Shown here piece after piece: positions 32,643 through 64,000 of a DNA stretch of 64,000 nt. A program made the position numbers and the translations under genes. This DNA comes from Saprospira sp. CCB-QB6 (lineage in GTDB: Bacteria; Bacteroidota; Bacteroidia; Chitinophagales; Saprospiraceae). The stretch spans positions 3,439,501-3,503,500 of the forward strand of contig NZ_CP116808.1 in the NCBI RefSeq assembly GCF_028464065.1. The letters run 5' to 3'. Under the pieces are notes generated by a model. That model searched no databases. It saw only the letters and a program-made list of their open reading frames with translations, and had not been told where the DNA came from. Positions within the stretch are counted from its first letter, which is position 1, and the number at the start of each line of letters is the position of its first letter.

Positions 32643-35600
32643 TTATCGCAAGAGCTGAATGCTGCCCTTTAAAACTAAAGTATGTCCATCTATAAATTCT
32701 AGTTCAGCATACCAAGCATAAACCCCAGAATTCATCGGTCGGCCCTTAAAGCTGCCATCCCAACCCCCTTGGGGATCGTTTGGTGCTAAGTTTTGGCCCT
32801 CAAAGACCAACTCGCCCCAACGGTCATAAACTCTGAAGAGTTTGACCAGCTGTAGGCGATCATCTCCCTGAATAAAGAAGCGATCATTGGCCCCGTCACT
32901 ATTGGGCGTAAAGGCATTGGGCGCCGCCGCAATTCGCTCTTTGTCAATGAAGACTGTAATGCTGCTATCCAAGCGACAACCGCGCTCGTTTTGGGCCACA
33001 AATTCATAAATCGCCCGATCAAAAGGCCGCACCCACAACTGATAACTGCTATCGGTCAATAACTGATTGTTCAAGCTTTCGCTCCAGCTGAAACTAACGC
33101 CCGAACTATCATTGAGCAAGGCATAAAGCAGCAAGCTATCGCCATAAGCTAGGGTGGTATCGGCTGGACCAAATTGCTGCAAGAAGAAGGGCAAGCCCGC
33201 TTCTACACTCACTAGGGTATCGGCCACACAATCATTATTGTCTCGAACATAGAGCGCATAATCAGCCGCTGCCAAAGCAGGGAAGTAGGGAGATGCCTGC
33301 CAGTTTATGCTATCCAAACTGTAGCTATAACCGCCCAATGCAGTAGAACCGCCCTGGGCCAAGATTAAGATACTTCCATTGCTTTCGCCCAAACAGCGCA
33401 CAGAATCGATCTCTGCAGATAGCTCAAGCGGAGCGGGATCCACAAACTGAATGCTGTCTGTTTGCTGACAACCATTGGCATCGGTGGCCGTTACGGCATA
33501 CCAAGCAGCGCCTAGGCCTTGGGCCAGCGACTGTGTATCGCCATGGGACCAAAGATAGCTGTATGGGGCTGTACCTGAATGGGCCAAGGCTTCCACACTA
33601 GCCGTTTGATCTCCAGTACAACGAATATTGCTTTGCGGCTTGAGGGTTAATCCCAAGGCGGGGGGACCGCCCAAGACATATTGGAAGTCTGAACTACAGC
33701 CGTTTTGATCGACTACCGTCAAATTATAGAGCCCTGCAGCCAAGCCCGTTAAGGGCTCCCCAACTTGTCCAGTAGACCAAAGGAAGGCATTGACTGGAAC
33801 CGAAGAAGACTGATAGCTAATGCTGCCATCGTCGCCTCCAGCACAAGCGGGCATATTCAACTGCATATTGAGTTGTAGGGGCGCAGGATCGGTAATCTGC
33901 AGCGATAAATCAGCTGTACAACCATGTCTATCTGTTACGGTCAGACTGTAGCTCCCTGCCCCTAGGTTTTGGGCCGTGGGCGCTGTTTGCCCATCTGACC
34001 ATTGATAGCTCAGCGGAGAGGTTCCGCCGCTAGCTTGTACCTGAGCTTGACCATTTTGTTCGCCTTCACAGCGAGGGTCTTGGCTACTAACTAAGGTTAA
34101 TTGTATGCCAGCAGGCGCTCCCACTTGAGCACTTAAATTGAGGGCACAACCATTGGCATCGGTAGCTGTAAGGCTATAGTTTCCAGCAGTTAGGTTAGAG
34201 AGGATAGCGCTGTTGCCGCCATTGGACCAACTATAGTTGTAGTCGCCATTGGCTAAGGGCGTTCCTCCACTGATGATTGCCGTGAGCTGGCCCGATGCGC
34301 CATTTTGGCAAAGGGCATCCTGTACATTGATATAGCCCATCAAGCCACTTGCTGGCTCATCAACAACTACTTGTCCCTGAATGCTACAACCATTGGCATC
34401 GGTAACTGTAAGTTGGTAGTTTCCTGCGGCCAAGCCCGTCACTTGTTGCGTTTGGGCCCCATTGGACCAAAGGAAGCTATAGGGGAGGGTTCCGCCTTGT
34501 ACACTAGCTGTCGCTTCACCATCTACTCCTTGCAAGCAGCCTGCAGCTTGGCTACTTAAGCTGAGTTGAAGAGCCGCTGGAGCTAAAAGTTCAAAACTAT
34601 CGACTAGTTGACAACCGCCTGCATCGCTAACTGTAAGGCTATGCCAGCCTGCGCTCAAGTTGCTGGCATTGGCGCTGCTGCTTCCATTGGACCAGCTATA
34701 TTGATAGGGGGAAGTTCCACCGACCACTACGGCTTCTAGTTCGCCATCTGCTGCATTATGGCAGCTAGGCGCCTGAATTTGATTGATGGCGAGTCCTAGG
34801 CCCATTGGTTGGCTCAACTGAATGTTGGCATTCTGCTGACAACCTTTAGCATCGGTCACAATCAATTGATAGCTGCCTGCGGCTAGGTTTGTAGCGGTAG
34901 CAGTGGTTTGTCCATCGGACCAAAGGTAAGTGTAGGGGGCCGTTCCTCCTGTAGCTACCACTGTGGCCGTACCAGAGTTTTGTCCCTGACAGTTGGGGGC
35001 GGTCGTCTGCAATTGAATTTGTAAGCTACTGGGCTCTTCTACTAAAACGCTAGCTGTAAATTGGCAGCCTTGCGCGTCGCTAATTGTCAATTGGTAGTTG
35101 CCCGCCGTCAATCCTCTAGCTTGTTGGCCGCTTTGGCCATTGGACCATAGATAATTGTAGGGGGCGGTTCCTCCACTCGCTTGGGCGAGGATCGCTCCAT
35201 CGCTACTGCCTGCACAACTGGCCGAATCTACTTGGAAGCTAATTGCTAGGGGAGAAGGGCTATGCAAGCTGGTCGTTTTGACCAAACTACAGCCGTTGGC
35301 ATCAGTTAGGCTTAGGCTATAACTCCCTGCAGATAGGTTAGTGGCCGTAGCTGTTGTTTGTCCATCGGACCAAAGGTAAGCATAGGGGGCTGTTCCTCCT
35401 GTCGCCAAGGCGACTAGGCTTCCATCATTGCCATTAAAGCAGCTAGGATCATTTGGGCTAAGCTGTAGTTGCAGGGGCGCAGGAGATGTAATTTCTATGC
35501 TATCTTGAATTTGGCAACCATTGCCATCTCTCAGCTGAACAATGTACCAGCCTGCGCATAGGTTGCTCCAGTTGTTATTGGGACCAAAGACTTGACCGTT

Positions 35601-38600
35601 TTGGCCAGGGCCCAAAAGGCGATACTCATAACCATTTTGGCCTAGTGTGCCTGTGCCAGCTACTGCTTGATAGATAATCTGGCCATCGCAGCTATTGGCA
35701 CAGCTAGCCGCACTTACTGTTTGTTGGGCAGCAAGGGCCAAAGGCGCGCTAATCTCTATGCTATCAACAGCAGTACAACCATTGGCATCACTAAAGCTGA
35801 CGCTATACCAACCCGCCGATAGGTTTTGAATCAGAGCTGTATTTTCCCCTGTAGACCAACTGATGAGATAAGGGCTAGTTCCGCCCTGCGCCTGAACGCT
35901 AAGCGCTCCATCACTAGCGCCTGCACAGCTAATAGTTGCCCCATGATAGTTGCTGTAAATACTAATAGTTGGTTGTATAGCCGAGGGTGCTACTAATTGT
36001 ATGCTTGTTGTGGCCTGACAGCCTCTAGCATCTGTGGCGGTCAGACTATAGTTCCCTGCTGCTAATTGCTGTAGATCCTCAGTAGTATCTCCTGTAGACC
36101 AAAGGAAGCTGTAGTTTGGCGTTCCCCCTTGGGCATCGGCATCAATCCAGCCATCTGTTCCTTGATAACAGCTCGGATTTTGACTATTTAATACATTGGC
36201 AATAACGGCATTGTTGGGTTCTTGTACGAAAGCCGAAGCGGCAATACTGCAGCCATACGCATCGGTAACTGTAAGCTGATAGGGACCCGCTGTTAGGTTA
36301 TTGATATTAGTTGTGGTTTGTCCATTGGACCAAAGGTAGCTGTAAGGCGCAATACCTCCACTGACTAGGGCTGAAATGCTTCCGTCTGCCCCAGCATTAC
36401 AGCGTACAGAGTCGGCATCTAGTTGTAGGGCCAAGGCTGTAGGCTCTGTAATTGTCCAGTTGCCCATCCAACTACAAGCATTAGCATCGGTAACAGTAAG
36501 TTGGTAAAGTCCAGCGGCTAGGCTGCTAATCGTGCTTGTTGTTTGTCCATTAGACCAAAGATAAGTATAGGGGGGAAGGCCGCCTTGCATAAAGACGCTC
36601 AATTCCCCATTCTGTTGGCCCGCACAAATGATGTTTTGCTGCTGTATACTATCTAATAGTAGGCTATCGGGGGCAATAAGCAGCACACAGCTACTGTCTT
36701 GGCAGCCATTGATGTCTGTTACGCTAAAACAGTAGTTGCCTGCTGCTAGACTGTTTTGTAGGGCTTGCTGACTACCATTGCTCCATTGGCCCTGAAGGCT
36801 TCCCCAGCCCCCACTATAGTTAGCTTCTAGCTGTCCATCTTCGGCAGTGGCGCAAGAGGTGGTATAGCCATTATAGAAGCTTAGGGTATCAATGGTCAAC
36901 TGTATAGCAGCAGGGGCTTGTAGACTAATGCTGCTACTATCTTGGCAGCCATTCTGGTCGCTAATCGTAATGGCGTAATTCCCAGCAGCCAATCCGTTGA
37001 TGCTGCTCGTGCTAGCTCCTGTACTCCAGCTGTAGCTATAGTTAGCCGTTCCGCCAGTTACTGTTGCACTAAGCGCAGCATCCGTGGCCCCAAAGCAAGA
37101 GATTGGACTACCATTGTAGTCTTGATCTATCGTAATGTTTGCTATTAAGGGGTTAGGCTCTTGAATACTTACCAAGATGGTGTCCATACAGCCTACATCA
37201 TCAATAACTTGGACTAAATAGTTGCCCGCTGCTAAGGCTGAGAACTGTCCCGTTTGGTTGGTATCTCCAGCCATGATATAGTTGTAGGGAGCCTGTCCGC
37301 CTGCGGCGGTTAAGCTAAAGGCGCCAGAGCTATCGCCAGCGCAATTGAGGTCCTGACTAGCCAGTAAACTGATTTGGATAGGACTAGGCGGCACAGGAAT
37401 ATTCAATTGTAGGGTGTCATAACAACCATTGCGGTCGCTAATGGTCACACTATAATTGCCCGCACAAAGATTAGTGACCAAGGAGGTACTATCTCCATGA
37501 GACCATTCATAATAGTAGTCTGTTGAAATGCTTCCGCCAATTGCCGTTATAGCCGCAGAACCATCACAAAGACCTGGACATTGGGGCAGGCTTCCATTGA
37601 CTAAAGTTGCCTGCACTGGGCTTGGACTGCCAATTTGGACCGTCATGCTATCCTGACATCCATTGTTGCTACTAACGGTAACGCTATAAGTTCCTGCACA
37701 AAGGCCTGTGGCCGTGGCTGTAGTTTGATTGCCTGCGGCCGCATCCCATAAATAGTTGTAGTTAATGGCCAAACCTGAAAGGGGTAAAACTGTAGCAGAA
37801 CCATCACAGCTGCCCAAACAGCTCTCATCTCTTTGAGAGGCAAGCTGCAACCCCAAAGCGTTGGTGCTATCGACAAAAACACTATCAATAGCAGAGCAAC
37901 CCCCAGGTCCAGAAGAGGTGACTGTAACGGTATACCAGCCCGGACTAAGGTTCGTGATGACAGAGTCTACGGCACCATTCGACCATTGGAAACTAAAAGG
38001 AGGTGTTCCCCCTACAGTCGTTGCTGTGGCCGTACCATTATTGCTGCCACAACCCGAAGGAGTAGAGGTCGGCATAGGCACTGGGCTAGTCGTCGTCTGT
38101 ATCATGAATGTCCCATTGTTGCTTCCTCCAAGGAAGTTAAACCCACCATCAATCTGGACAATATAAGGGGTGTTGGGTTGCAGGTTGGTATAAGTGAATG
38201 ACCAGTTTATCGGCTGGGTCATACAGCTATTAAAGCTTTGGCAATCAACCAGCACATCAGGGTTATTATCGCAAGGGCTGCTATCTTGGAAGAAAGAGAT
38301 ATTAAAACCATCGCCGGGCACGGTGCCCCCAATACAGTTTCCACTAGAGGTGGCATTGATAATACTTAAAGTTACGGCACTACCATTACAGTCAGAGACA
38401 AAGTAGTAGTAAAGAGAATGCTCAGGGTCATCTCCCTCTCCACATTCAAAATAACCTGGGGCGCCAGCTGCAACTCCTTCTCCAGTAGCCGAGGCCGTGT
38501 TGAAGCAGTAAGGAACATTCGGTTGAATGGGGTAGGCAATGGCATTGAGGCAGTTGTCGGCCCCACAACCTTCCGATACGCAGAGTTCAAAGTTCTCATT

Positions 38601-41600
38601 ATCATCATCTCCACCATCGTTGAAGACTTGGAGGAGGATTTGGCTGCCAGGAGGAGCGGCAATCTCAAAGCCGACATCGCCACTAAGGCCGCCTGTACCA
38701 CAAGCTAGCTGTTGGAGGTTGCCGCATCCACCGCTATAAGCCACAACTACTAGGTCGGAGAAGTCGCCAATAGGAGAGGAGGAGCTAATCCCATCATCAT
38801 TACCCTCTACAAGAGCTACACCACTACTGGGCATGGTAAAGCTATACCAAGTTTCTCCACAATTTTGTCCACAACTACTGGCTTGGCTAGCGGTAGGCAC
38901 GCCATAATTGTAGCTGTTCCAGCTGCCACTGCCATTGGTACAAGATTCTGATTGAACGGGAATGCTGATGGCATTTTGGCAGTAGTTATTGACGGGCTCA
39001 GGGTCATTGGGTTGCCCTGTACCAAAGAGCGGCTCCATATCCCGAACTCGGATGGTGAATTCCCCTTCTCGATTTAGGCCCTCTCCATCGACTTGGATGA
39101 AGTAAATGTTGCCGGGCGTCAAACAAGTTGCTTCGACATTCTCGGTAATGATTGCCGTGGGGAAGTTCGAGCCATCACTTAGGCTGAGTTGGCCCGTACA
39201 ACTATTTGTTGAGGAGCCGAAGATGTAGACTTCTGGGTCTATCCCAAAGATAGGATCATTGCTTTCCACTTCGATCTCTACACGGCCTGAAGGCGGAGCC
39301 GTAAACTGGTACCAAACGCTATGTTCGGCATAGCCGCCCAAACCTGGCTCTCCTAATTCTACATTAGCACATTCATTGGTCTCATTGCCTAGGCTAGCAA
39401 AGCTGCCTGTGGGCAGTCCAAAGTCGTAGGCATCACAAATGTTGTTATTATAAGGGAAGCTGGTGCTTCCTCCATCATCTTCGATCTCAATCGTGAAGTA
39501 ACCTTCTTCTACCCCAAAGTAATCTTCTTGTCCATCTACTTGTAGATAGTAGGTTGCCCCTGGAACCAAGCAAGTAATGCTCATTGATTCATCGTTCAGT
39601 AGGGGGTCGTAATCACTACCCATTTCTAGCCAAGGGCCTGCACAAGTGCCGCCGGGACTGTACCAAAGGGCAAGCTGCAAGTTGGGGTTGTCGCCCAAAC
39701 TTGCGGGGTCTGATTCTAAGCTGATACTGATATTTCCAGAAGTAGGGGCCTCAAAACTAAACCAGACGGTCTCATCCACCGCAAAGGCCGAGGGATTAGG
39801 TTCGTTGGGCTCTACCGTAGCACAGTAGTTATTGTAACTGACGTTATTGTTGATGCTGCCTCCATTGGGAACGGCTCCTAAGGGCGTGGCATTACAAATG
39901 TTGTCGTTGGCAGGGAAAGCGCCAGCCCCATCATCTTCAATCTCAATCGTAAAGTAACCCTCTACATCAATGAGGGAACCATCTACTTGGACCCAGTAGG
40001 TCTCTCCTGGAACCAAACAGGTTAAATTGACCTCCGCATCAAAGCTTAGGGTGGGATTGTCTACTCCTTCTTCCAAAAGTTGGAGGTTGCCCGTACAGCT
40101 TCCATTAGAAGAGCGGTAAACGGCCAACTGTAGGTCTACGCCATTGCCTTGGTTATTGGGATCAGACTCTACACGAATGCTAACCTCTGAAGAAGTGCTG
40201 GCCCCAGCATGTGCAGGTGCCTGAAAGCTAAACCAAACGGTCTGTTCTATATTAAAGGGAGCGGGTTCTCCCGATTCCGTATCTGCACAAAAATTAGAAT
40301 AGTTGATGTTGTTATTGATTCGGCCTCCAATAGGTACAGCGCCCAAGGCTTCTGCATTACAAAGGAGGTCATTAGTGGGAATTGGCACAGAGGGGGCCTG
40401 ACTGATGGTCAAATCAAAGTAGCCCTGCACATCTAAGAAGGAGCCATCCACCATGATGAAATAGGTCTTGCCCGCATCTAGACATTGTACGTCCATATCT
40501 TCATCAAAGAAGCCTGGATCATAATCACTTTCTACTTCTGTGAGGGTACCTGTACAACTGTTATTAGAAGATTCAAAAACAGCCAATTGAATATCTATGG
40601 CGTCTTGAGAACTAAAGGGCGTAAAGGTAGTGGCCGAAATGTCTACGGCATAAGGTCCCCCTGTGGCAGGGGTAGTAAAGCTGTACCATACGGTCTGGTC
40701 CGCATCAAAATCATCTGGATTCGGATCGCCAATGGCATCGGCACAGAGGTTATGCTGATTACTGATGCTTTGGGGGCCATTAGTAAAGGGATCTCCCAAA
40801 GGAATCGCATTGCAGATAAGATTATTAGGGGCTACGGGGATAGGCGGAATCTCGCGGATTGTAATATCAAAATATCCTTCTTCGGGGTCCAAAATAGCGA
40901 GGTCTGCACCATTCACTTGTACATAGTAGACATCCCCTGGGTTCAAACAATAGACCTCTAGGTCCAAATCAAAGACGACCAGGTCATCTCCGCTGTTCAT
41001 TTCTCGCCAACTGCCCGTACAGCTAGCCGCTTCCCAAACAGCTACTTGTAAATCAATGGGATCCACTCCATTAAGTGGATCATCAGAGCTAAGCTCGATC
41101 TCTACATTACCGCTAGCGGGGGCCGTAAAGGTATACCAAACTGTTTGGTTAGGGTTAAAGGCGCCCGGATTGGGCTCTCCAGCTCCTGTTGCACAGAAGT
41201 TGTTCTGACTTCCATGTTGTGGACCTGGACTGCTTCCTATCTGCCCTCCTGTTGGGTCGCCCAAATAGATGGCATTACAAGGATCATCATTTGTTGCGGG
41301 GGGATCGCGAGGGTCTCCATAGATTTCCAGATCAAAGATACCCTCTTGGAGGTCGGGGTCAAAAAGAGCGCCCTCTCCATCTACCATAAGGAAATAGGTT
41401 CGCCCTGGAGTAAGGCATTCTACCTCCATGTTTTCATCCCAGACGACTCCAATTCCATCATGTTCGCTTTGCACTTCTGTCAAGGGATCGGTACAAGTTT
41501 GGTTAGCGGCATCAAAAACAGCCAATTGTAGATCAATTTGGTCCGAGCCGAATAGACTTTGGTTCTCTGCTCGAATTTCTACCTTACCTGAGGGGGGCGC

Positions 41601-43160
41601 AACAAAGGTATACCAAACGCCACGATCATTCCCCCAGTTGTTGGGGATGGGCTCAAAGAGATTGTCTGCACAATAGTTATTCTGATCGGTTAGTCCTACG
41701 GTACCGCCAGCAGCAGGGGCCCCTAGGGCAATTGCATTACAAATCTGGTCATTGGGAGCGGGGGGGATTCCTCCGTCTCGCACTTCCAGATCAAAGATAC
41801 CATCTACATTAAGGGTAGAGCCATCTACCATAATATAATAGATGCGGCCTGCTTCCAAGCAGCGCACATCTAGTTCTTCTCCAAAGCCAGTTGGATCATA
41901 GTCGCTATCTACTTCGCTGAGGGTTCCTGTACAGCTATTGTTCGAGCTGCTATAAAGGGCCAACTGAAGGTCTACGGCATCTGTCCCGAAGGGGGCCGGT
42001 TGGTCACTATTGGCCTCAATGATGACATGCCCAGAAGGAGGGGCCTCAAAGGAGAACCATACGCCCTGCTCATTGCTCCAATTGCCAGGAACAGGCTCAT
42101 TGGCATTGCTCGCACAAAGGTTAGATTGGCTGAGGGCGATAGTCTGAACTTGCCCCCCTGCTGGAACGGCACCCAGATGGGTAGCTGCACAGATACTATC
42201 GGCTGATTGCTGCACCCCAAGGTCAAAAATTTCTAAGCCGAAGTAACCTTGGCCGTCATCTGTGAAGGGGATGCCGCTATCTTCCCCATCTACTAAGAGA
42301 AAGTAGGTGGTATTAGGCTGCAAGCATTCTACACTCATTTCTTCATCGTAGAGGGCGCCTGCGCCCTGATAATCTTCGGCCACTAGGCTAAGGGCGCCAT
42401 TACAAGTTCCTGTAGAACTTTCATAAAGGGCCAATTGTAGATCAATCCCATCCCCTAAGTTTTGGGGATCAGAGATAGCCTCAAAGCGGAGGCTAGCGCT
42501 GGGGTTGGGGCCTGTGGTAAACTGAAACCAAACGCCTTGTTCATTGGCATTGCCCCAGGGGCTAGGTTCTAAGGTATTAGTTGCACAGAAGTTCCCATAG
42601 TTGCTTAGGCTGTTGTCGCCAATAGAACTGTTGCTATTTAGGGTGCCTAGGTTGATGGCATTACAAATCTGATCATAGGCTTGGCCTGCATTGACAAAGC
42701 TTCCTGTTGCCCGAACGGTAAAATCTACCTGTCCCCAGCTGCTGTTCCCACAACAGTTGGGAATGCTTAGGGTATAATTGACAGAGGTCCCTGCAGCGGG
42801 AGTTGCAAAGTTCTGACAAATCTGGGCCAAACAAGTTTGGTCTACCACACAGGCGGCTCCATCATCCTCAAAGGCTCTAAAGCAGAGCTGAATAGTAGCG
42901 GGATAATCTGTTGCACAGATAAAGTCCTCATCGTATTGCCTATTGGGGGCATCGGTAAAGCAGGCCCCCGATTGGGGGTAGGTGGTCCAGCCTTGGCTTT
43001 CTATATTGACCCGCCATTGGGGATCGGGACTTCCGCCAAAGATGCCGTCTGTACAACTGGTTCCCGCTGTTCCCGAGTTGATGATGACCTCTAGACGAAC
43101 TTGGGCCTGCAGGCTCCAAGTACAGAGAAATAGGAGGCCGATTAGGTAGATATGTCGCAT
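32643..43160 (-). CDS. Giant T9SS-exported SprB-repeat surface protein (about 3505 residues)
   Basis: ATG 43160 opens a Sec signal peptide (MRHIYLIGLLFLCTWSLQAQ). Residues of about 20-160 form a first cysteine-rich module. About 160-1690 hold roughly ten units of 120-150 residues, each starting CNAI..LG and containing VWY-F-AP-SG, DLQLAVY and CL-PG-TYY-MVDG, a layout like pre-peptidase C-terminal domains. About 1690-3340 hold some 21 SprB-type repeats of about 75 residues (C-G..DG...GGTAPY-YLWS-GQTT....LAAGNY-LTVTDANGC). The last 95 residues (APNAFTPNSDGANDRF ... VYAWYAELEF) are a type B T9SS sorting domain. SprB-like proteins act as mobile surface adhesins in gliding. No sprF/porP gene is adjacent. 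Its neighbours are only repeats. Confidence 0.93.
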   Translation of the reverse strand: MRHIYLIGLLFLCTWSLQAQVRLEVIINSGTAGTSCTDGIFGGSPDPQWRVNIESQGWTTYPQSGACFTDAPNRQYDEDFICATDYPATIQLCFRAFEDDGAACVVDQTCLAQICQNFATPAAGTSVNYTLSIPNCCGNSSWGQVDFTVRATGSFVNAGQAYDQICNAINLGTLNSNSSIGDNSLSNYGNFCATNTLEPSPWGNANEQGVWFQFTTGPNPSASLRFEAISDPQNLGDGIDLQLALYESSTGTCNGALSLVAEDYQGAGALYDEEMSVECLQPNTTYFLLVDGEDSGIPFTDDGQGYFGLEIFDLGVQQSADSICAATHLGAVPAGGQVQTIALSQSNLCASNANEPVPGNWSNEQGVWFSFEAPPSGHVIIEANSDQPAPFGTDAVDLQLALYSSSNNSCTGTLSEVDSDYDPTGFGEELDVRCLEAGRIYYIMVDGSTLNVDGIFDLEVRDGGIPPAPNDQICNAIALGAPAAGGTVGLTDQNNYCADNLFEPIPNNWGNDRGVWYTFVAPPSGKVEIRAENQSLFGSDQIDLQLAVFDAANQTCTDPLTEVQSEHDGIGVVWDENMEVECLTPGRTYFLMVDGEGALFDPDLQEGIFDLEIYGDPRDPPATNDDPCNAIYLGDPTGGQIGSSPGPQHGSQNNFCATGAGEPNPGAFNPNQTVWYTFTAPASGNVEIELSSDDPLNGVDPIDLQVAVWEAASCTGSWREMNSGDDLVVFDLDLEVYCLNPGDVYYVQVNGADLAILDPEEGYFDITIREIPPIPVAPNNLICNAIPLGDPFTNGPQSISNQHNLCADAIGDPNPDDFDADQTVWYSFTTPATGGPYAVDISATTFTPFSSQDAIDIQLAVFESSNNSCTGTLTEVESDYDPGFFDEDMDVQCLDAGKTYFIMVDGSFLDVQGYFDLTISQAPSVPIPTNDLLCNAEALGAVPIGGRINNNINYSNFCADTESGEPAPFNIEQTVWFSFQAPAHAGASTSSEVSIRVESDPNNQGNGVDLQLAVYRSSNGSCTGNLQLLEEGVDNPTLSFDAEVNLTCLVPGETYWVQVDGSLIDVEGYFTIEIEDDGAGAFPANDNICNATPLGAVPNGGSINNNVSYNNYCATVEPNEPNPSAFAVDETVWFSFEAPTSGNISISLESDPASLGDNPNLQLALWYSPGGTCAGPWLEMGSDYDPLLNDESMSITCLVPGATYYLQVDGQEDYFGVEEGYFTIEIEDDGGSTSFPYNNNICDAYDFGLPTGSFASLGNETNECANVELGEPGLGGYAEHSVWYQFTAPPSGRVEIEVESNDPIFGIDPEVYIFGSSTNSCTGQLSLSDGSNFPTAIITENVEATCLTPGNIYFIQVDGEGLNREGEFTIRVRDMEPLFGTGQPNDPEPVNNYCQNAISIPVQSESCTNGSGSWNSYNYGVPTASQASSCGQNCGETWYSFTMPSSGVALVEGNDDGISSSSPIGDFSDLVVVAYSGGCGNLQQLACGTGGLSGDVGFEIAAPPGSQILLQVFNDGGDDDNENFELCVSEGCGADNCLNAIAYPIQPNVPYCFNTASATGEGVAAGAPGYFECGEGDDPEHSLYYYFVSDCNGSAVTLSIINATSSGNCIGGTVPGDGFNISFFQDSSPCDNNPDVLVDCQSFNSCMTQPINWSFTYTNLQPNTPYIVQIDGGFNFLGGSNNGTFMIQTTTSPVPMPTSTPSGCGSNNGTATATTVGGTPPFSFQWSNGAVDSVITNLSPGWYTVTVTSSGPGGCSAIDSVFVDSTNALGLQLASQRDESCLGSCDGSATVLPLSGLAINYNYLWDAAAGNQTTATATGLCAGTYSVTVSSNNGCQDSMTVQIGSPSPVQATLVNGSLPQCPGLCDGSAAITAIGGSISTDYYYEWSHGDSTSLVTNLCAGNYSVTISDRNGCYDTLQLNIPVPPSPIQISLLASQDLNCAGDSSGAFSLTAAGGQAPYNYIMAGDTNQTGQFSALAAGNYLVQVIDDVGCMDTILVSIQEPNPLIANITIDQDYNGSPISCFGATDAALSATVTGGTANYSYSWSTGASTSSINGLAAGNYAITISDQNGCQDSSSISLQAPAAIQLTIDTLSFYNGYTTSCATAEDGQLEANYSGGWGSLQGQWSNGSQQALQNSLAAGNYCFSVTDINGCQDSSCVLLIAPDSLLLDSIQQQNIICAGQQNGELSVFMQGGLPPYTYLWSNGQTTSTISSLAAGLYQLTVTDANACSWMGNWTITEPTALALQLDADSVRCNAGADGSISALVSGGIAPYSYLWSNGQTTTNINNLTAGPYQLTVTDAYGCSIAASAFVQEPNNAVIANVLNSQNPSCYQGTDGWIDADAQGGTPNYSFLWSTGDTTEDLQQLAAGNYSLTATDARGCQATTSIQLVAPSAIQPTISIYSNYHGATISCAGASDGALSVQAQGGTSPYLISWSTGENTALIQNLSAGWYSVSFSDANGCTAVDSIEISAPLALAAQQTVSAASCANSCDGQIIYQAVAGTGTLGQNGYEYRLLGPGQNGQVFGPNNNWSNLCAGWYIVQLRDGNGCQIQDSIEITSPAPLQLQLSPNDPSCFNGNDGSLVALATGGTAPYAYLWSDGQTTATATNLSAGSYSLSLTDANGCSLVKTTSLHSPSPLAISFQVDSASCAGSSDGAILAQASGGTAPYNYLWSNGQSGQQARGLTAGNYQLTISDAQGCQFTASVLVEEPSSLQIQLQTTAPNCQGQNSGTATVVATGGTAPYTYLWSDGQTTATATNLAAGSYQLIVTDAKGCQQNANIQLSQPMGLGLAINQIQAPSCHNAADGELEAVVVGGTSPYQYSWSNGSSSANASNLSAGWHSLTVSDAGGCQLVDSFELLAPAALQLSLSSQAAGCLQGVDGEATASVQGGTLPYSFLWSNGAQTQQVTGLAAGNYQLTVTDANGCSIQGQVVVDEPASGLMGYINVQDALCQNGASGQLTAIISGGTPLANGDYNYSWSNGGNSAILSNLTAGNYSLTATDANGCALNLSAQVGAPAGIQLTLVSSQDPRCEGEQNGQAQVQASGGTSPLSYQWSDGQTAPTAQNLGAGSYSLTVTDRHGCTADLSLQITDPAPLQLNMQLNMPACAGGDDGSISYQSSSVPVNAFLWSTGQVGEPLTGLAAGLYNLTVVDQNGCSSDFQYVLGGPPALGLTLKPQSNIRCTGDQTASVEALAHSGTAPYSYLWSHGDTQSLAQGLGAAWYAVTATDANGCQQTDSIQFVDPAPLELSAEIDSVRCLGESNGSILILAQGGSTALGGYSYSLDSINWQASPYFPALAAADYALYVRDNNDCVADTLVSVEAGLPFFLQQFGPADTTLAYGDSLLLYALLNDSSGVSFSWSESLNNQLLTDSSYQLWVRPFDRAIYEFVAQNERGCRLDSSITVFIDKERIAAAPNAFTPNSDGANDRFFIQGDDRLQLVKLFRVYDRWGELVFEGQNLAPNDPQGGWDGSFKGRPMNSGVYAWYAELEFIDGHTLVLKGSIQLLR

Positions 43161-43270
43161 ATAGCTGTTTTTTGTCAAACAAAATGGAGGGCTAAAAATA
43201 AGAAATCATTAGCAGTTCTTCACTAAACGTTTGTCTACAGCCTGCTTGTTGTCAAGGGGACTGATTTTTT

Positions 43271-59436: not shown

Positions 59437-59464
59437 TGATCTTTTTTCTAATTCTAATTTTTTT

Positions 59465-59700
59465 GGGGCTGCCCCTTCCGCCGGGTTGAAACCCAGCGCA
59501 AAGCGGCATCGCTTTGCGAAGCTATACAAAATGAGGGTTAAAACCCTCATGAATTATCGGTCGGGTCGGGCTGTTTCGCAGCTCGCTGTTCGCTCGGCCC
59601 TGCGCAAAAAAACAAGTTTTTTGCTGGGTCTGGCCTTCGGCCACTGCTGTCCATCCCTCAGCCGCGTCGCTGCGCTCCTTTGCGGCGGCTTCGCCGCCTG
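59465..59700 (+). repeat. Family A repeat, copy 20, carrying a nested 77-bp family C unit
   Basis: It has the same architecture as copy 6, with the head, then C at 59481-59557, then CGGTCGGGTCGGGCTG and the rest. Its head is 28 bases from the polA start codon, so the polA promoter must lie in or beyond it. Confidence 0.85.
59481..59557. repeat. Family C repeat, copy 4 (nested in family A)
   Basis: GGGTTGAAACCC, GCAAAGCGGCATCGCTTTGC and GAGGGTTAAAACCCTC follow in order. It is 77 bases long, like the copy at 13991, with about eight differences. Confidence 0.8.
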
Positions 59701-59786
59701 TCCCCTCCAAAAAAAGGAGCGGAGTTTGGGCCAAAAGATAATGAATTTATTTTGAAGGGAGGGGATTTGTGGGGGAGGAGAGGAAA

Positions 59787-59820
59787 AAGCGCCAAATGGA
59801 AATTTTTCCATTTGGCGCTT
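59787..59820 (-). terminator. Terminator of the coiled-coil/KAP unit
   Basis: The perfect 16-bp arms AAGCGCCAAATGGAAA / TTTCCATTTGGCGCTT are followed by TTTT on the minus strand. The hairpin lies eight bases after the KAP gene stop. Confidence 0.9.
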
Positions 59821-59827
59821 GGTGAAG

Positions 59828-62788
59828 CTAAAAGACTTTTATCAAATAAAATCCTGCTGAGTTATATTCATAAATATTGTACTTGAACTTTAGATGATTA
59901 CCTTTCTGAAGGTCGATATCATCAATATCTATTTTTGCCGTAGAGTATATTTCTAATACATCTCCTGTAGTTATTGCGGTATCATCCATTTCTAAATCGT
60001 CAATTTTTGTACCATAGGGAACCGCGATGTACAGTTTATGAGTGGAGGCCATTTTACTTTGGTTAATTTCAATTTCTACTTTACGTCTTATCTGAAATAA
60101 CTCTTTAGCATGCTTGAGATAGAGTTTTTGAATGCCAGAGTTATAGGCATTAACATTTGCTATAAAATCAGTGATATTTTCGGCCTCACCATAAATAACT
60201 GGAGCGTATTTTAAGTCTGCTACAAAATAGCGCCCCCAGTTGGGGTGCATAACAGGTGGTTCTTGTTTTATCTCTGTTCTATGGACTTGACTTTTGTAGG
60301 CATCCAAAAACTCCTCTAAAGCTTTGTGTTGATTGTTATTTAATTTGCTTGAACAAGCTGTTATGAATTTAGTGAAGTCTTCTATGTCGTCAGGAAATAG
60401 TAATAAGGATAAATAATAGAAGAAGGTGCCTTTTAAAACAAACGGATTTATATGAGGGTGTAAAAAGTTGCCTATCCAAAGTGGATCAAAGAATTTAATC
60501 AATACTTGCTTGATCCTCAATTTAGTCGCATTAGACATAATGAGCTTCTTATCGATGGATTGGATTCTAAATAACTCCCCAAGACAGAAAAATAAAATCT
60601 TAGTATTTCTAGCATCAAGTTGATCTCCTTGCTCAATCTTTTTAATAAAGCCTTCAAATTGCATATATCCATATTCAAACAAGTCTTGATCAAGTAATTT
60701 GATTTTATAATCATTTAATGATACTGCCCCAAGTAGACGCACTACATTTTCGTTATTTTTGAACTCCTCTCCATCCAGAATCTGTCTTAAAACAGATAAA
60801 AAGTCTGTTTCATCCGTTGAGTCAATTACTCTTTGTTGCAACTCATTATTGTATAAAGTAGCATGAATTAGGTCAGGATTCACTTCAATAGTAAAGTAGA
60901 TATGTAGACATCGGCTTAAACTTTCTTTGGACTGAATAGAGTGAATGACATCAGATTTTAGATTAGTAGAGAGCTTTTTTCTGAGAATAATTTTTTTCTC
61001 CTCTGAAATAGAAGCTAGGTCATTTATAAAGTTATTTTCTGTTCCTGAAATATATAGAAAAACGGTTTCTGTAATACGGCTAATGTCAGGAACAAAGATT
61101 TGGTATAAAAGGCTAAAATTATCTACATGATAAATTCTTTTTCTAGTAGAGACTTCGGGCTCTTCTTCTGTTGGGCTAGACTCTTCTATAAGATCATAAT
61201 CATCTGTAACTTCAAAAGTTTGGACATTGAAAAGAGTTTTTATGATTGGAAGTGTGGATCTATTTCTCAAATGTAAGATTGAAATAATTTTTTCCTTATC
61301 CTTTTCTATGTGTAGTGTGTTTGTGTTTGTGTTTGTGGTAAAAATATATTTCTGTTTTTTCCAGAGCATTTCATAGACCTCATAATACTTTAATCGAATT
61401 AGGTAGAGGTAAAAGAAGTCTTTACTATGAATATATTCCCCCATTTCAATGAAGTCCAATATAATGCTATTATAAAAGCGTACGATATCTCTAGGCGTTT
61501 CGAGATAATGCCATAGTATTTTACTATCAGCATTTAGCCAATCCTTATTTTCTTCTGCTTCAATTACTTCTCTTAAGCTCTCTTCCTTACTATTTTTTAA
61601 TAAATTTTTCAGTACTTGAAATAAATTGTTATAATCAAGTTTGGGCAGAACAACTTCTTTTTGTACAATTTTTTCCAGAAAATATTTGCTATTGTGGTCG
61701 CTTAAGGCTTTTTTGATGGCTTTTTCTACATAAGCTTTAGAATAAGCAACAATAAAAGTAATTCCCTTAAAATTGGCAACATTTCGAATGAGCTTCAGTA
61801 CCGCGACTACTTCTCCTGCATCTAATCGGTCAAGATCATCAATAACAACAACAATGGGTTCTTCAATACTGTCAATGGCTTTAGCTAGCTTCTGATAGCT
61901 TTCTTCTGTTCCTTCAATGTTAGGAGTTAATAGTTTTAGTGCTTGTAGTCCTAGTTTCCCCACTTTGGGAACTCCAGCTGCAGGAATAGCCGTAGAAATA
62001 TTAAGTAAACTATTTAGGTAGTTAGAAATTTCCGGAGCTAATTGTTCATTGTAAGGAGAGAGTGATTTTTTTAGGCTATAGAAAAAATCGGCAATCACGG
62101 CTTCTTCTCCCTTATTCTTCCAGGGAGAGAAAGGGATGATTATTGCACGATCATTTTCTTCTAGTTCATCTTTGATGTGCTTAATAAAAGTTGTTTTTCC
62201 TGAGCCCCATTCTCCTGTAATGGCTAGTGCAAAAGCTTGCTCCGTATTTATATGAATAATATTAGTCGCAATTTTTTTAGCTAAATCTTTTCTAGGGCTA
62301 GTTTCTTCATCTGGAAAGATGATAGATAAATCGTCTTCGGCAACAAAAAGAGACGTTGCTGAGTCCTGTTTAAGCGTATTTTTCCCTGGCCAATTTTTTA
62401 TTTTCCACCATAAAAAAAAGACTAGGTGCATACCTGAAATTAGATGTATTAGATGTAAATACTTAAAGTTGCTACTAGAGGGAAAAAAAATGACTGTAGT
62501 TTTACTTATGCAAAATTGATAGTATAAAAGACTTAAGCTAAAAGATAACCAAAAAGACAGCTGCATGTAGAAGTCTGTTTTTTTGTTAATTTTAATGCGT
62601 ATAAATCGAATAGCAATAATAATAAGAGCTACAACAATGAAAAAAACAAGCTGAGTATAATTGACTTGGTTGAATGTGATAAATTTCTCGAATTTTATTA
62701 GAGAAATAATATATAAAAATGACTTCTCAAAAGCAATACTTAAGAATGCTAGTAGAGGATAGAAAAGCAGTTTTTTTTTTGACTCCAA
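59828..62788 (-). CDS. KAP-family P-loop NTPase with four N-terminal membrane segments
   Basis: The 986-residue protein has four hydrophobic helices (about 8-31, 47-64, 75-93 and 110-130). The KAP NTPase domain follows: Walker A GEWGSGKTT at 192-200, the conserved PFSPW after it, and Walker B VVVIDDLDRLD at 313-323. A long C-terminal part (about 480-986) is unrecognised and ends in a beta-rich stretch. KAP NTPases are membrane-linked and include PifA, which aborts phage infection. The reading frame has no ATG between its upstream in-frame stop and residue 75. It either starts at TTG 62788, inside the preceding gene, or is made as a fusion by a -1 slip at the shared A10 run. The base composition is AT-rich compared with polA next door, so transfer is possible. 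Confidence 0.85.
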   Translation of the reverse strand: MESKKKLLFYPLLAFLSIAFEKSFLYIISLIKFEKFITFNQVNYTQLVFFIVVALIIIAIRFIRIKINKKTDFYMQLSFWLSFSLSLLYYQFCISKTTVIFFPSSSNFKYLHLIHLISGMHLVFFLWWKIKNWPGKNTLKQDSATSLFVAEDDLSIIFPDEETSPRKDLAKKIATNIIHINTEQAFALAITGEWGSGKTTFIKHIKDELEENDRAIIIPFSPWKNKGEEAVIADFFYSLKKSLSPYNEQLAPEISNYLNSLLNISTAIPAAGVPKVGKLGLQALKLLTPNIEGTEESYQKLAKAIDSIEEPIVVVIDDLDRLDAGEVVAVLKLIRNVANFKGITFIVAYSKAYVEKAIKKALSDHNSKYFLEKIVQKEVVLPKLDYNNLFQVLKNLLKNSKEESLREVIEAEENKDWLNADSKILWHYLETPRDIVRFYNSIILDFIEMGEYIHSKDFFYLYLIRLKYYEVYEMLWKKQKYIFTTNTNTNTLHIEKDKEKIISILHLRNRSTLPIIKTLFNVQTFEVTDDYDLIEESSPTEEEPEVSTRKRIYHVDNFSLLYQIFVPDISRITETVFLYISGTENNFINDLASISEEKKIILRKKLSTNLKSDVIHSIQSKESLSRCLHIYFTIEVNPDLIHATLYNNELQQRVIDSTDETDFLSVLRQILDGEEFKNNENVVRLLGAVSLNDYKIKLLDQDLFEYGYMQFEGFIKKIEQGDQLDARNTKILFFCLGELFRIQSIDKKLIMSNATKLRIKQVLIKFFDPLWIGNFLHPHINPFVLKGTFFYYLSLLLFPDDIEDFTKFITACSSKLNNNQHKALEEFLDAYKSQVHRTEIKQEPPVMHPNWGRYFVADLKYAPVIYGEAENITDFIANVNAYNSGIQKLYLKHAKELFQIRRKVEIEINQSKMASTHKLYIAVPYGTKIDDLEMDDTAITTGDVLEIYSTAKIDIDDIDLQKGNHLKFKYNIYEYNSAGFYLIKVF

Positions 62789-63513
62789 AAAGTAATAAAT
62801 TTGACTAGCCTTTTTCTGAGGCTAGTCTTTTTCTTTGGAGGTGTCATCTTGTATATCTTTTTATCGAGAATTTGTGCTTCTCTCTTATTCTGCTCAACAA
62901 GAGCAGTTCTTAATTCTTCTATTTGTTTATTTAATGATTTTAATTTTTCTTGGTCATTGGATCCTAACTTTTCTTCCTCTCTTTCGATAATTTTTTGATA
63001 GAGTTCTTTTTCCTTGGTACACGTTTCTATAGATGCTCGCTTTTTAGCTTCTTCATACTTTCTTTGTAAGGCAAGTTCTTTAAACTTAGCTTCGTCAGAA
63101 TTAAGGTCTTCTCTTAAAACAGATAGACTAGATGTTTTGAGAGTTGTTTCAGTAGTTAATTTTTTTAGTACTTCTTTTTTTTCCTCTTCAGCTTTTTTTA
63201 AGGCGTCTAATGCCTTATTTATACTTTTTATATCTTCTGCCTCTAGATGTGTAAATCCAAGTGTCTTTAGTTCTGCTATTTCTAATTCAGTTATTAGTTT
63301 TCTTCTTTCTAGGTTTGTTAAGGATTTTTTAAGGTTATCGATATTTTTTATGTTCGAGTTTATTGTTTTTTCTTTACCTTTAGACTCATGGTCAATTTTA
63401 TCTATGGCTTTTTGTGTTAGCTTAGTTTTTTCCGCTATTATAGTTTCAAGCTTTTCTTGAAGCTCTTCAGCTTTTTTCAAAAGCTCTTTAACGTCATCTT
63501 TATCAGAATTCAT
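62749..63513 (-). CDS. Coiled-coil protein preceding the KAP NTPase
   Basis: The 254-residue protein is almost wholly charged helix (residues 1 to about 220, rich in K, E, L and with heptad spacing such as LKKAEELQEKLETII and LKSLNKQIEELRTALVEQ). It has no signal peptide or membrane segment. Its last about 40 residues turn basic (PPKKKTSLRKRLVKF). It overlaps the KAP gene by 40 bases in another frame, and the overlap contains ten consecutive A at 62771-62780. It probably oligomerises and acts with the NTPase. No enzymatic motif is seen, and the family is unrecognised. Confidence 0.8.
   Translation of the reverse strand: MNSDKDDVKELLKKAEELQEKLETIIAEKTKLTQKAIDKIDHESKGKEKTINSNIKNIDNLKKSLTNLERRKLITELEIAELKTLGFTHLEAEDIKSINKALDALKKAEEEKKEVLKKLTTETTLKTSSLSVLREDLNSDEAKFKELALQRKYEEAKKRASIETCTKEKELYQKIIEREEEKLGSNDQEKLKSLNKQIEELRTALVEQNKREAQILDKKIYKMTPPKKKTSLRKRLVKFITFWSQKKNCFSILY
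62803..62827 (-). promoter_or_regulatory. Hairpin just upstream of the KAP start
   Basis: The perfect 8-bp arms GACTAGCC / GGCTAGTC have a nine-base centre. The hairpin is 15 bases from the TTG start and 22 bases from the A10 run. It could hide or expose the KAP start depending on translation of the first gene; this is inference. No T-tract follows, so it is not a terminator. Confidence 0.45.
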
Positions 63514-63675
63514 GATTATCCATTTTAGGTCTTAGTAAAATAAAGGCTAAAATAAGTAAAAACATTGTTGGGACCCTAGTGGTTGTTTAGCTTTTTAGTT
63601 GAAAAAAAAGAATAAGGACTATTAGGAAAAAAATTACTAGATATCGCCCTTTCAATTAGCCCTTTTCAAATAGCA

Positions 63676-63715
63676 AAAGGCCGAAAAATTACTTAGGTTT
63701 TTCGGCCTTTTTTTT
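63676..63715 (+). terminator. Terminator-like hairpin with T8
   Basis: The 13-bp arms AAAGGCCGAAAAA / TTTTTCGGCCTTT are followed by further T on the plus strand. No plus-strand gene lies to the left within 3 kb. It may insulate the last gene from antisense transcription of the coiled-coil/KAP unit. The rest of 63514-63781 holds no recognisable gene. Confidence 0.7.
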
Positions 63716-63720
63716 GCTCT

Positions 63721-63728
63721 TACCTTTG
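63721..63728 (+). promoter_or_regulatory. Candidate -7 promoter box (TACCTTTG) for the last gene
   Basis: It fits TAnnTTTG 54 bases upstream of ATG 63782, directly behind the hairpin. Confidence 0.5.
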
Positions 63729-63781
63729 CAATCCCCAAAAATAAACTTAGCTTTAAAAAGCAACAAAAAATATAAAGACTT

Positions 63782-64000
63782 ATGGGCCAGTTGGATAAAA
63801 AGTTTCAGGATTATAAGCTGAGCAAAAAAATGCTCAAGGCGTTTTATGGTATTTCTTATCCTACTTTGCGCAAACGCCTAAGGGCTGCGGGTTTGGACGC
63901 ATTTATTGGCCGCCGAAAATTTTTGTTTGGGGAGTTTCTGCTCATTTTTAAGGCCTTGGGCCAGCCCGAGCAAATTTATAAGGAGCTAGAAGAGCTGGCG
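63782..64000 (+). CDS. Unknown protein, 3' truncated by the window end
   Basis: From ATG 63782 the frame stays open to the window edge (73 codons). The visible part begins MGQLDKKFQDYKLSKKM and contains ISYPTLRKRLRAAGLDAF, a short helix-turn-helix-like stretch, then GEFLLIFKALGQPEQIYKEL. It could be a small DNA-binding or hypothetical protein. There is not enough sequence to decide. Codon use looks like ordinary coding DNA of this genome. Confidence 0.65.
   Translation, partial: MGQLDKKFQDYKLSKKMLKAFYGISYPTLRKRLRAAGLDAFIGRRKFLFGEFLLIFKALGQPEQIYKELEELA

What the first reader, a model, noticed from the sequence alone, without database searches (positions are those of the whole stretch)
59828..63513. 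Coiled-coil/KAP NTPase unit with a possible programmed -1 frameshift fusion
The two genes overlap by 40 bases and share ten consecutive A (62771-62780). In the first frame this run reads CAA AAA AAA AAC and so contains A_AAA_AAA, a classic -1 slip site. A -1 slip moves exactly into the KAP frame and would give a fusion of about 1230 residues, with the coiled coil attached to the first membrane helix. The KAP frame lacks any ATG before residue 75. The pair sits alone between polA and an unrelated gene, is AT-rich, and has its own terminator. KAP NTPases are known in phage exclusion (PifA), so a two-mode defence or membrane-sensing system is plausible.
Basis: partly seen in the sequence, partly recalled or inferred. 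Interest (0 to 1): 0.72.

Follow-up and report, generated by a model that had tools for sequence, protein, structure and literature searches.

The report
Slip-tract coiled-coil KAP defence gene
A marine bacterium carries, in a spot where its relatives keep anti-virus genes, a membrane ATPase gene whose front part is out of step by one letter at a run of ten As beside a predicted RNA hairpin, so a slipping copying enzyme could make both a short and a long protein from one gene.

Summary
On the minus strand a 254-aa helical, coiled-coil-like ORF overlaps a 986-aa KAP NTPase frame by 40 nt. A10 (62771-62780) lies in the overlap with the phase needed to join them (1228 aa, 143 kDa).

The most telling feature was not in the finding. 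The 67 nt 5' of the run fold into a stem-loop (z -4.8; 0 of 200 shuffles) that ends on the first A and pairs the only early KAP start (TTG). It is the strongest composition-corrected structure among 452 windows of the unit and the most extreme z among the genome's 22 A>=10 tracts. Nothing unusual folds 3' of the run. This is the anatomy of transcriptional slippage, so I prefer RNA-polymerase slippage to a ribosomal -1 shift.

Defence context is good: the polA site holds Gabija in S. grandis DSM 2844, and the relatives' KAP site holds DarTG in another strain.

Against: the pair is seen in one genome. The coiled coil is an orphan (1 of 396 genomes of the order), and KAP homologues lack it and the A10. 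DNA phase variation, recent mutation, assembly error, or two coupled proteins remain possible. No RNA or protein data exist here.

The parts
62749..63513 (-). zero-frame ORF, 254 aa, 29.7 kDa: three long helices (3-84, 92-182, 185-223), no proline before residue 225, then a basic tail
   Evidence: AlphaFold single-sequence model, mean pLDDT 82.8; no Pfam, PADLOC, NCBIfam or PHROGs hit
62780..62846 (-). predicted RNA stem-loop abutting the A run on its 5' side; its 3' strand ends on the first A of the run and pairs the whole TTG codon (62788-62786)
   Evidence: dG -21.7, z -4.81, 0 of 200 shuffles; pair list; rank 1 of 452 windows
62771..62780 (-). A10 slippage run in the overlap of the two frames
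59828..62788 (-). KAP NTPase frame, 986 aa from TTG: predicted N-terminal membrane helices, KAP domain, about 540-aa C-terminal region
61463..62293 (-). KAP P-loop domain (residues 166-442; Walker A GEWGSGKT, Walker B region DDLDR)
   Evidence: PF07693, 164.5 bits against a cut-off of 20, E 4.3e-48; motifs invariant in the 4-row alignment A1
59828..63513 (-). whole unit; if one A is added to the transcript it encodes a 1228-aa coiled-coil/membrane/KAP protein; A10 gives 254 aa, A12 gives 262 aa
59787..59820 (-). intrinsic terminator-like hairpin after the KAP frame
63675..63711 (+). terminator-like hairpin on the upstream side, between the unit and the divergent gene at 63782

Best explanation
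One accessory gene, probably for phage defence, encoding an N-terminal coiled-coil region joined through a basic linker to a membrane-anchored KAP NTPase. RNA polymerase slips on the A10 run, helped by the nascent-RNA stem-loop that ends at the run. Transcripts with ten As give the short soluble coiled-coil protein (254 aa); transcripts with one more A give the membrane-bound fusion (1228 aa). The short form may tune or oligomerise with the long form, which would sense infection through its C-terminal region and act at the membrane. Shown: ORFs, run, frame relation, KAP domain, helical prediction, predicted stem-loop, hotspot. Inferred from published precedent: slippage and both products. Inferred only: the division of labour and the defence activity.
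For: Frame phase is right and A10 exceeds the 9-A threshold at which a review reports efficient bacterial polymerase slippage; the same review describes a 5'-adjacent nascent stem-loop as the enabling feature in a Roseiflexus insertion sequence (PMC5009743, passages). Citrobacter tssM1 has A11 before a stop and makes two needed length variants at about 20% shifting (PMC4256274, abstract and one Results section). Stem-loop: z -4.81, 0 of 200; rank 1 of 452 windows in the unit (the target window was added to an 8-nt grid, and ranks 2 and 3 are the grid windows overlapping it); z -5.38 against -2.24 to +1.84 for the 21 other A>=10 tracts; lower than all but 2 of 2000 synonymous versions. Downstream z -0.41. 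Both ORFs are intact, and ten other runs of 7-8 bases inside them keep frame. The fusion supplies a linker that continues without gaps into the DSM 2844 KAP N-terminus. In-frame N-terminal extensions occur in other KAP genes (L030, L018, L100). Hotspot: Gabija GajA/GajB at this site in DSM 2844 (E 7e-227 and 2e-245); DarTG at the pssA site in G057, the site that holds KAP in DSM 2844 and G100 and is empty in this genome.
Against: Single genome; the coiled coil has no relative in 396 genomes of the order apart from itself (E<=1e-6), so neither run nor stem can be tested for conservation or covariation. Homologues work, as far as annotation shows, without the coiled coil. Raw folding energy is not exceptional: 19% of 80-nt windows of the 64 kb fold as well, and one place in the unit folds lower. 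Permuting synonymous codons with the same codon set reaches the observed energy in 60 of 1000. The linker homology is weak: 5 of 29 identities, anchored shuffle p 0.02, but free local alignment p 0.5-0.6. The inner hairpin is also terminator-like for the opposite strand, so it may have another role. No RNA or protein data.
Confidence: 0.5

Rival explanations
1. DNA-level change: the A run is a phase-variable switch, or has recently lost one A, so that this isolate holds the off form of a single coiled-coil/KAP gene and A11 cells are on.
For: A run of ten As is also prone to replication slippage (general knowledge; homopolymer phase variation appears in the listings). The KAP gene of G100 is also out of frame with its ATG, at a C6 run, compared with DSM 2844, so KAP genes of this genus do suffer N-terminal frame breaks.
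Against: It does not account for the stem-loop next to the run. The C6 site of G100 has no such structure (z 0.06). Two other A10 runs lie well inside ORFs and are in frame (L066, L070).
Confidence: 0.18
2. Two separate proteins: coiled coil and KAP are made independently, KAP starting at TTG 62788 by translational coupling in the overlap.
For: MESKKKLLFYP would be a normal N-terminus: L087 seems to start with TTG as LKKKHILP, and L022 and L105 offer only GTG. Homologues have short tails before the first membrane helix.
Against: The TTG is fully paired in the stem and lies 40 nt inside the upstream ORF. No other early ATG, GTG or TTG in the KAP frame. The coupling does not explain A10 in the one phase that joins the frames.
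Confidence: 0.15
3. Assembly or sequencing error: the true genome has A11 and one uninterrupted 1228-aa gene.
For: Homopolymers next to hairpins are error-prone; an uninterrupted fusion is the simplest ancestral gene. The sequencing technology is unknown to me.
Against: Ten other runs of 7-8 bases in the two ORFs keep frame. Against 18, 50 and 51 ORFs (>=150 aa) of three relatives in the syntenic region, the split rows found for this genome reduce to none in a real gene: ten of eleven distinct cases are antisense to longer open frames and one is the leader of a ribosomal-protein gene. Two other A10 runs inside ORFs are in frame.
Confidence: 0.12
4. Programmed -1 ribosomal frameshifting at A AAA AAC or A AAA AAA.
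For: Both heptamers are in the zero frame; same fusion product.
Against: No 3' structure (z -0.41). A structure 5' of a shift site is reported to weaken -1 shifting in one virus (PMC5009743 passage). A10 is longer than a heptamer needs.
Confidence: 0.05

Closest known systems
KAP family P-loop NTPases (PF07693)
   Same: Domain far above cut-off, Walker motifs, membrane helices next to the NTPase
   Different: Orphan coiled-coil ORF out of frame at the N-terminus; none of 32 other TM-KAP loci shows it (only ORFs of 60 aa or more ending near the KAP frame were inspected)
PifA (F-plasmid phage exclusion; name recalled and PADLOC model)
   Same: NTPase region matches the PADLOC model, E 3.3e-60
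   Different: Only model positions 22-366 of 720 match; C-terminal part and gene setting differ
QatA of qatABCD
   Same: KAP-type ATPase in an anti-phage setting (PMC13279940, passages)
   Different: 47.1 bits against a cut-off of 600; no qatB, qatC or qatD neighbours seen
Citrobacter rodentium tssM1 (A11) transcriptional frameshifting
   Same: Poly-A run just before a stop, membrane protein, long form needs added A (PMC4256274)
   Different: Secretion gene; here a coiled-coil protein and a KAP NTPase are joined, and a 5' stem-loop abuts the run
Roseiflexus IS630 stem-loop-mediated transcriptional slippage
   Same: Inverted repeat 5' adjacent to the slip motif (PMC5009743 passages; the original paper was not read)
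   Different: There the motif is T5C5 and one base is lost; here A10 and one base would be gained

Membership tests
KAP NTPase (PF07693) | profile match over cut-off with intact Walker A and B motifs | tested here: met
   164.5 bits against 20; GEWGSGKT and DDLDR
KAP NTPase (PF07693) | membrane segments associated with the NTPase | tested here: met
   hydropathy only: 2 windows over threshold in this protein, 2-6 in the 32 others kept
PifA | full-length match to PifA | tested here: not met
   22-366 of 720 positions
QatABCD | QatA equivalog score and qatBCD neighbours | tested here: not met
   47.1 against 600 bits; neighbours are polA and a 155-aa HTH-like ORF
productive transcriptional slippage | run of 9 or more A/T in the phase that joins two frames | tested here: met
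productive transcriptional slippage | 5'-adjacent nascent RNA stem-loop (Roseiflexus type) | tested here: met
   prediction only:
productive transcriptional slippage | conservation of run and frame in relatives | tested here: not met
   no relative carries the pair; longest A run near the N-terminus of 30 other loci is A9, in frame
productive transcriptional slippage | mixed run lengths in RNA and two proteins | not testable with these tools
   no RNA or protein data
programmed -1 ribosomal frameshift | slippery heptamer | tested here: met
   A AAA AAA and A AAA AAC
programmed -1 ribosomal frameshift | 3' stimulatory structure | tested here: not met
   z -0.41; 64 of 200 shuffles fold as well
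phase-variable gene | run length differs between isolates or cells | not testable with these tools
   one genome per species held; no reads
anti-phage defence gene | location at a site that holds known defence systems in relatives | tested here: met
   Gabija at the same polA site
anti-phage defence gene | protection from phage | not testable with these tools
   needs a bench test

The most novel reading that the evidence does not exclude
A defence switch built on RNA-polymerase slippage: the stem-loop/A10 element sets the ratio between a free coiled-coil regulator and an armed membrane KAP fusion, and infection-caused changes in transcription shift that ratio, arming the cell without any DNA change or dedicated sensor.
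Probability: 0.15. Interest if true: 0.85.

Novelty: new variant of a known kind. Interest (0 to 1): 0.52.

Why it matters
If slippage is real, this would be a defence-type NTPase made in two forms by transcriptional slippage, which I did not find in print (search listings only). It would add a stem-loop-assisted A run to the few productive slippage sites and is easy to test with a reporter. It also warns that automatic annotation may file such genes as two genes or as a frameshifted pseudogene.

Tried and rejected
Ribosomal -1 shift as first choice: demoted for lack of a 3' structure. A repeat or mobile palindrome as source of the stem: the 86-nt stretch occurs once in this genome, and the other hits in the genus are 25-27 nt pieces at E 0.05-0.09. 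Other coiled-coil/KAP pairs: 54 loci brought by alignment A1 were examined; 33 had a membrane block before the NTPase (this one included), 18 had none, and 3 were not parsed. L088 has a coiled-coil-like lipoprotein ORF just upstream, but it ends before the KAP ATG. Viral contigs: no relative of KAP, of the coiled coil or of the junction DNA; plasmids: 118 records match KAP, none over 80% of the query, none match the coiled coil. No PDB relative by sequence. The AlphaFold model of KAP from a two-row alignment failed (mean pLDDT 38.9) and was not used. Promoter scan gave no more sites than shuffles (14 against 14.1).
Full report
The observation. The minus strand carries a 254-aa ORF (63513-62749) and a 986-aa KAP frame (62788-59828) that overlap by 40 nt and share A10 at 62780-62771. 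The KAP frame opens 11 codons before a TTG, its first ATG is residue 75, and reading one extra A gives 1228 aa and 143 kDa. The unit has GC 0.32 against 0.45 for polA and the window, and a terminator-like hairpin follows it. The first protein has no family match. AlphaFold models it as three long helices (mean pLDDT 82.8, pTM 0.25), it has no proline before residue 225, 44% of residues 1-222 are charged, and its hydrophobic residues repeat every 3.4-3.65 residues (0 of 2000 shuffles reach the observed power). That supports long amphipathic helices; coiled-coil pairing itself is inferred. The second protein is a KAP NTPase (E 4.3e-48).

The run and its hairpin. In the own genome 39 overlapping A10 hits make 22 tracts. 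I read the context of all 22: this is the only one that joins two overlapping ORFs of more than 200 aa. Four others lie in ORFs of more than 200 aa on the A strand, each in a single frame, two of them close to the stop. The 80 nt ending with the run (62850-62771) fold at -21.7 kcal/mol, z -4.81, none of 200 shuffles as low; the 81 nt after it give z -0.41. In a scan of 452 windows across the unit the target, which I added to an 8-nt grid, ranks first (z -5.57), with the two grid windows overlapping it next. Over all 22 tracts the same test gives -5.38 here and -2.24 to +1.84 elsewhere. Against: by raw energy 19% of windows in the 64 kb fold as well and another place in the unit folds lower; 2 of 2000 synonymous versions, but 60 of 1000 same-codon permutations, reach the energy. 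The stem runs from 62846 to 62780, ends on the first A of the run, leaves nine free As, and pairs all three bases of the KAP TTG. Read in the other direction the inner hairpin is terminator-like. The stretch is not a repeat in this genome.

Mechanism. A review reports high-efficiency bacterial slippage at nine As or Ts and a nascent stem-loop, 5' adjacent, as the enabling feature in a Roseiflexus element (PMC5009743; passages read; the original study was not read). Citrobacter tssM1 has A11 before a stop, shifts about 20%, and needs both forms (PMC4256274; abstract and one Results section). On that precedent A10 should slip to some degree whatever its purpose; that the product is used is inference. 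A ribosomal -1 shift at A AAA AAC would give the same protein but lacks a 3' structure. DNA-level variation, recent mutation and assembly error stay open.

Quality controls. Ten other runs of 7-8 bases in the two ORFs keep frame. Compared with three relatives in the syntenic region (18, 50 and 51 ORFs of at least 150 aa with hits), the split rows for this genome come down to eleven places: ten antisense to longer open frames and one in the leader of a ribosomal-protein gene. These speak against an error-ridden assembly but cannot certify one run.

Relatives. Of 6 genomes of the genus 4 match KAP, including this one. G100 has the same gene at the same site, 96% identical in DNA up to about codon 400, after which the C-terminal part is replaced while the flanks stay at 94-96%; its ATG is out of frame with the rest at a C6 run. 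The match in G102 is a weak, distant KAP. Across order, class and phylum samples (396, 395 and 395 genomes, overlapping), 22, 21 and 17 genomes match alignment A1 at the chosen cut-offs. Of 54 loci, 33 have membrane helices before the NTPase; of the 32 besides this one 28 have an ATG at or near the first helix (in one of these, L035, the first helices are in another frame), three offer only GTG or TTG, and G100 has none. None has the coiled coil. The coiled coil matches only itself in 100 genomes of the family and 396 of the order. The DSM 2844 N-terminal tail lines up without gaps with the coiled-coil tail across the junction, but the support is weak (5 of 29 identities; anchored p 0.02, local p 0.5-0.6).

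Setting. Between polA and a conserved radA-like gene (name by my reading) the four well-assembled strains differ: this unit here; GajA/GajB Gabija in DSM 2844 (E 6.7e-227 and 1.5e-245); an ATPase-Toprim-like protein and PADLOC candidate families in G057; a 595-aa ORF without PADLOC hit and a PDC-S26 candidate in G100. The pssA site (name by my reading) that holds KAP in DSM 2844 and G100 holds DarT and DarG in G057 (E 2.4e-55 and 2.5e-94) and is empty here. Both places therefore behave as defence hotspots, and the swapped C-terminal part suggests a recognition module. Protection from phage is untested.

Verdict. A KAP NTPase of probable defence function with a new N-terminal arrangement. The slip run is real in the assembly, and the abutting stem-loop makes polymerase slippage the best explanation, at about even odds. 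It is a new variant of a known kind, limited by having been seen once.

Noticed in passing
window 59454-59550 (approx.): The first 30 or so codons of the 965-aa polA ORF match an intergenic repeat scattered through the genus (dozens of short hits per genome in four strains), so the true polA start is probably downstream; the matches in two relatives begin at residue 14.
   Followed up: partly
window 59550-63780 and L052, L056, L060: polA-radA interval is a variable defence hotspot: Gabija in DSM 2844, ATPase-Toprim-like and PADLOC candidates in G057, other ORFs in G100.
   Followed up: yes
L116, L117, L009 (pssA site): Second hotspot: DarTG in G057, KAP in DSM 2844 and G100, empty in this genome.
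   Followed up: yes
L014 and L016: KAP genes of DSM 2844 and G100: about 400 near-identical N-terminal codons, then a replaced C-terminal part between conserved flanks, suggesting module exchange.
   Followed up: partly
L016, N-terminus: G100 KAP gene: the ATG is out of frame with the body at a C6 run, and no ATG, GTG or TTG lies in frame before codon 45 of the open frame.
   Followed up: partly
L035 1000-1350: A distant KAP gene has its first two membrane helices in a different frame from the rest, without an obvious slip run.
   Followed up: no
L100 and L030: KAP proteins with long in-frame N-terminal extensions (about 375 and 105 residues before the NTPase or first helix), possible exchangeable modules.
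   Followed up: no
window 62803-62827 (+): The inner hairpin followed by T5CT3 reads as an intrinsic terminator for opposite-strand transcripts.
   Followed up: no
window 32643-43178 (-): A 3511-aa ORF, not examined.
   Followed up: no
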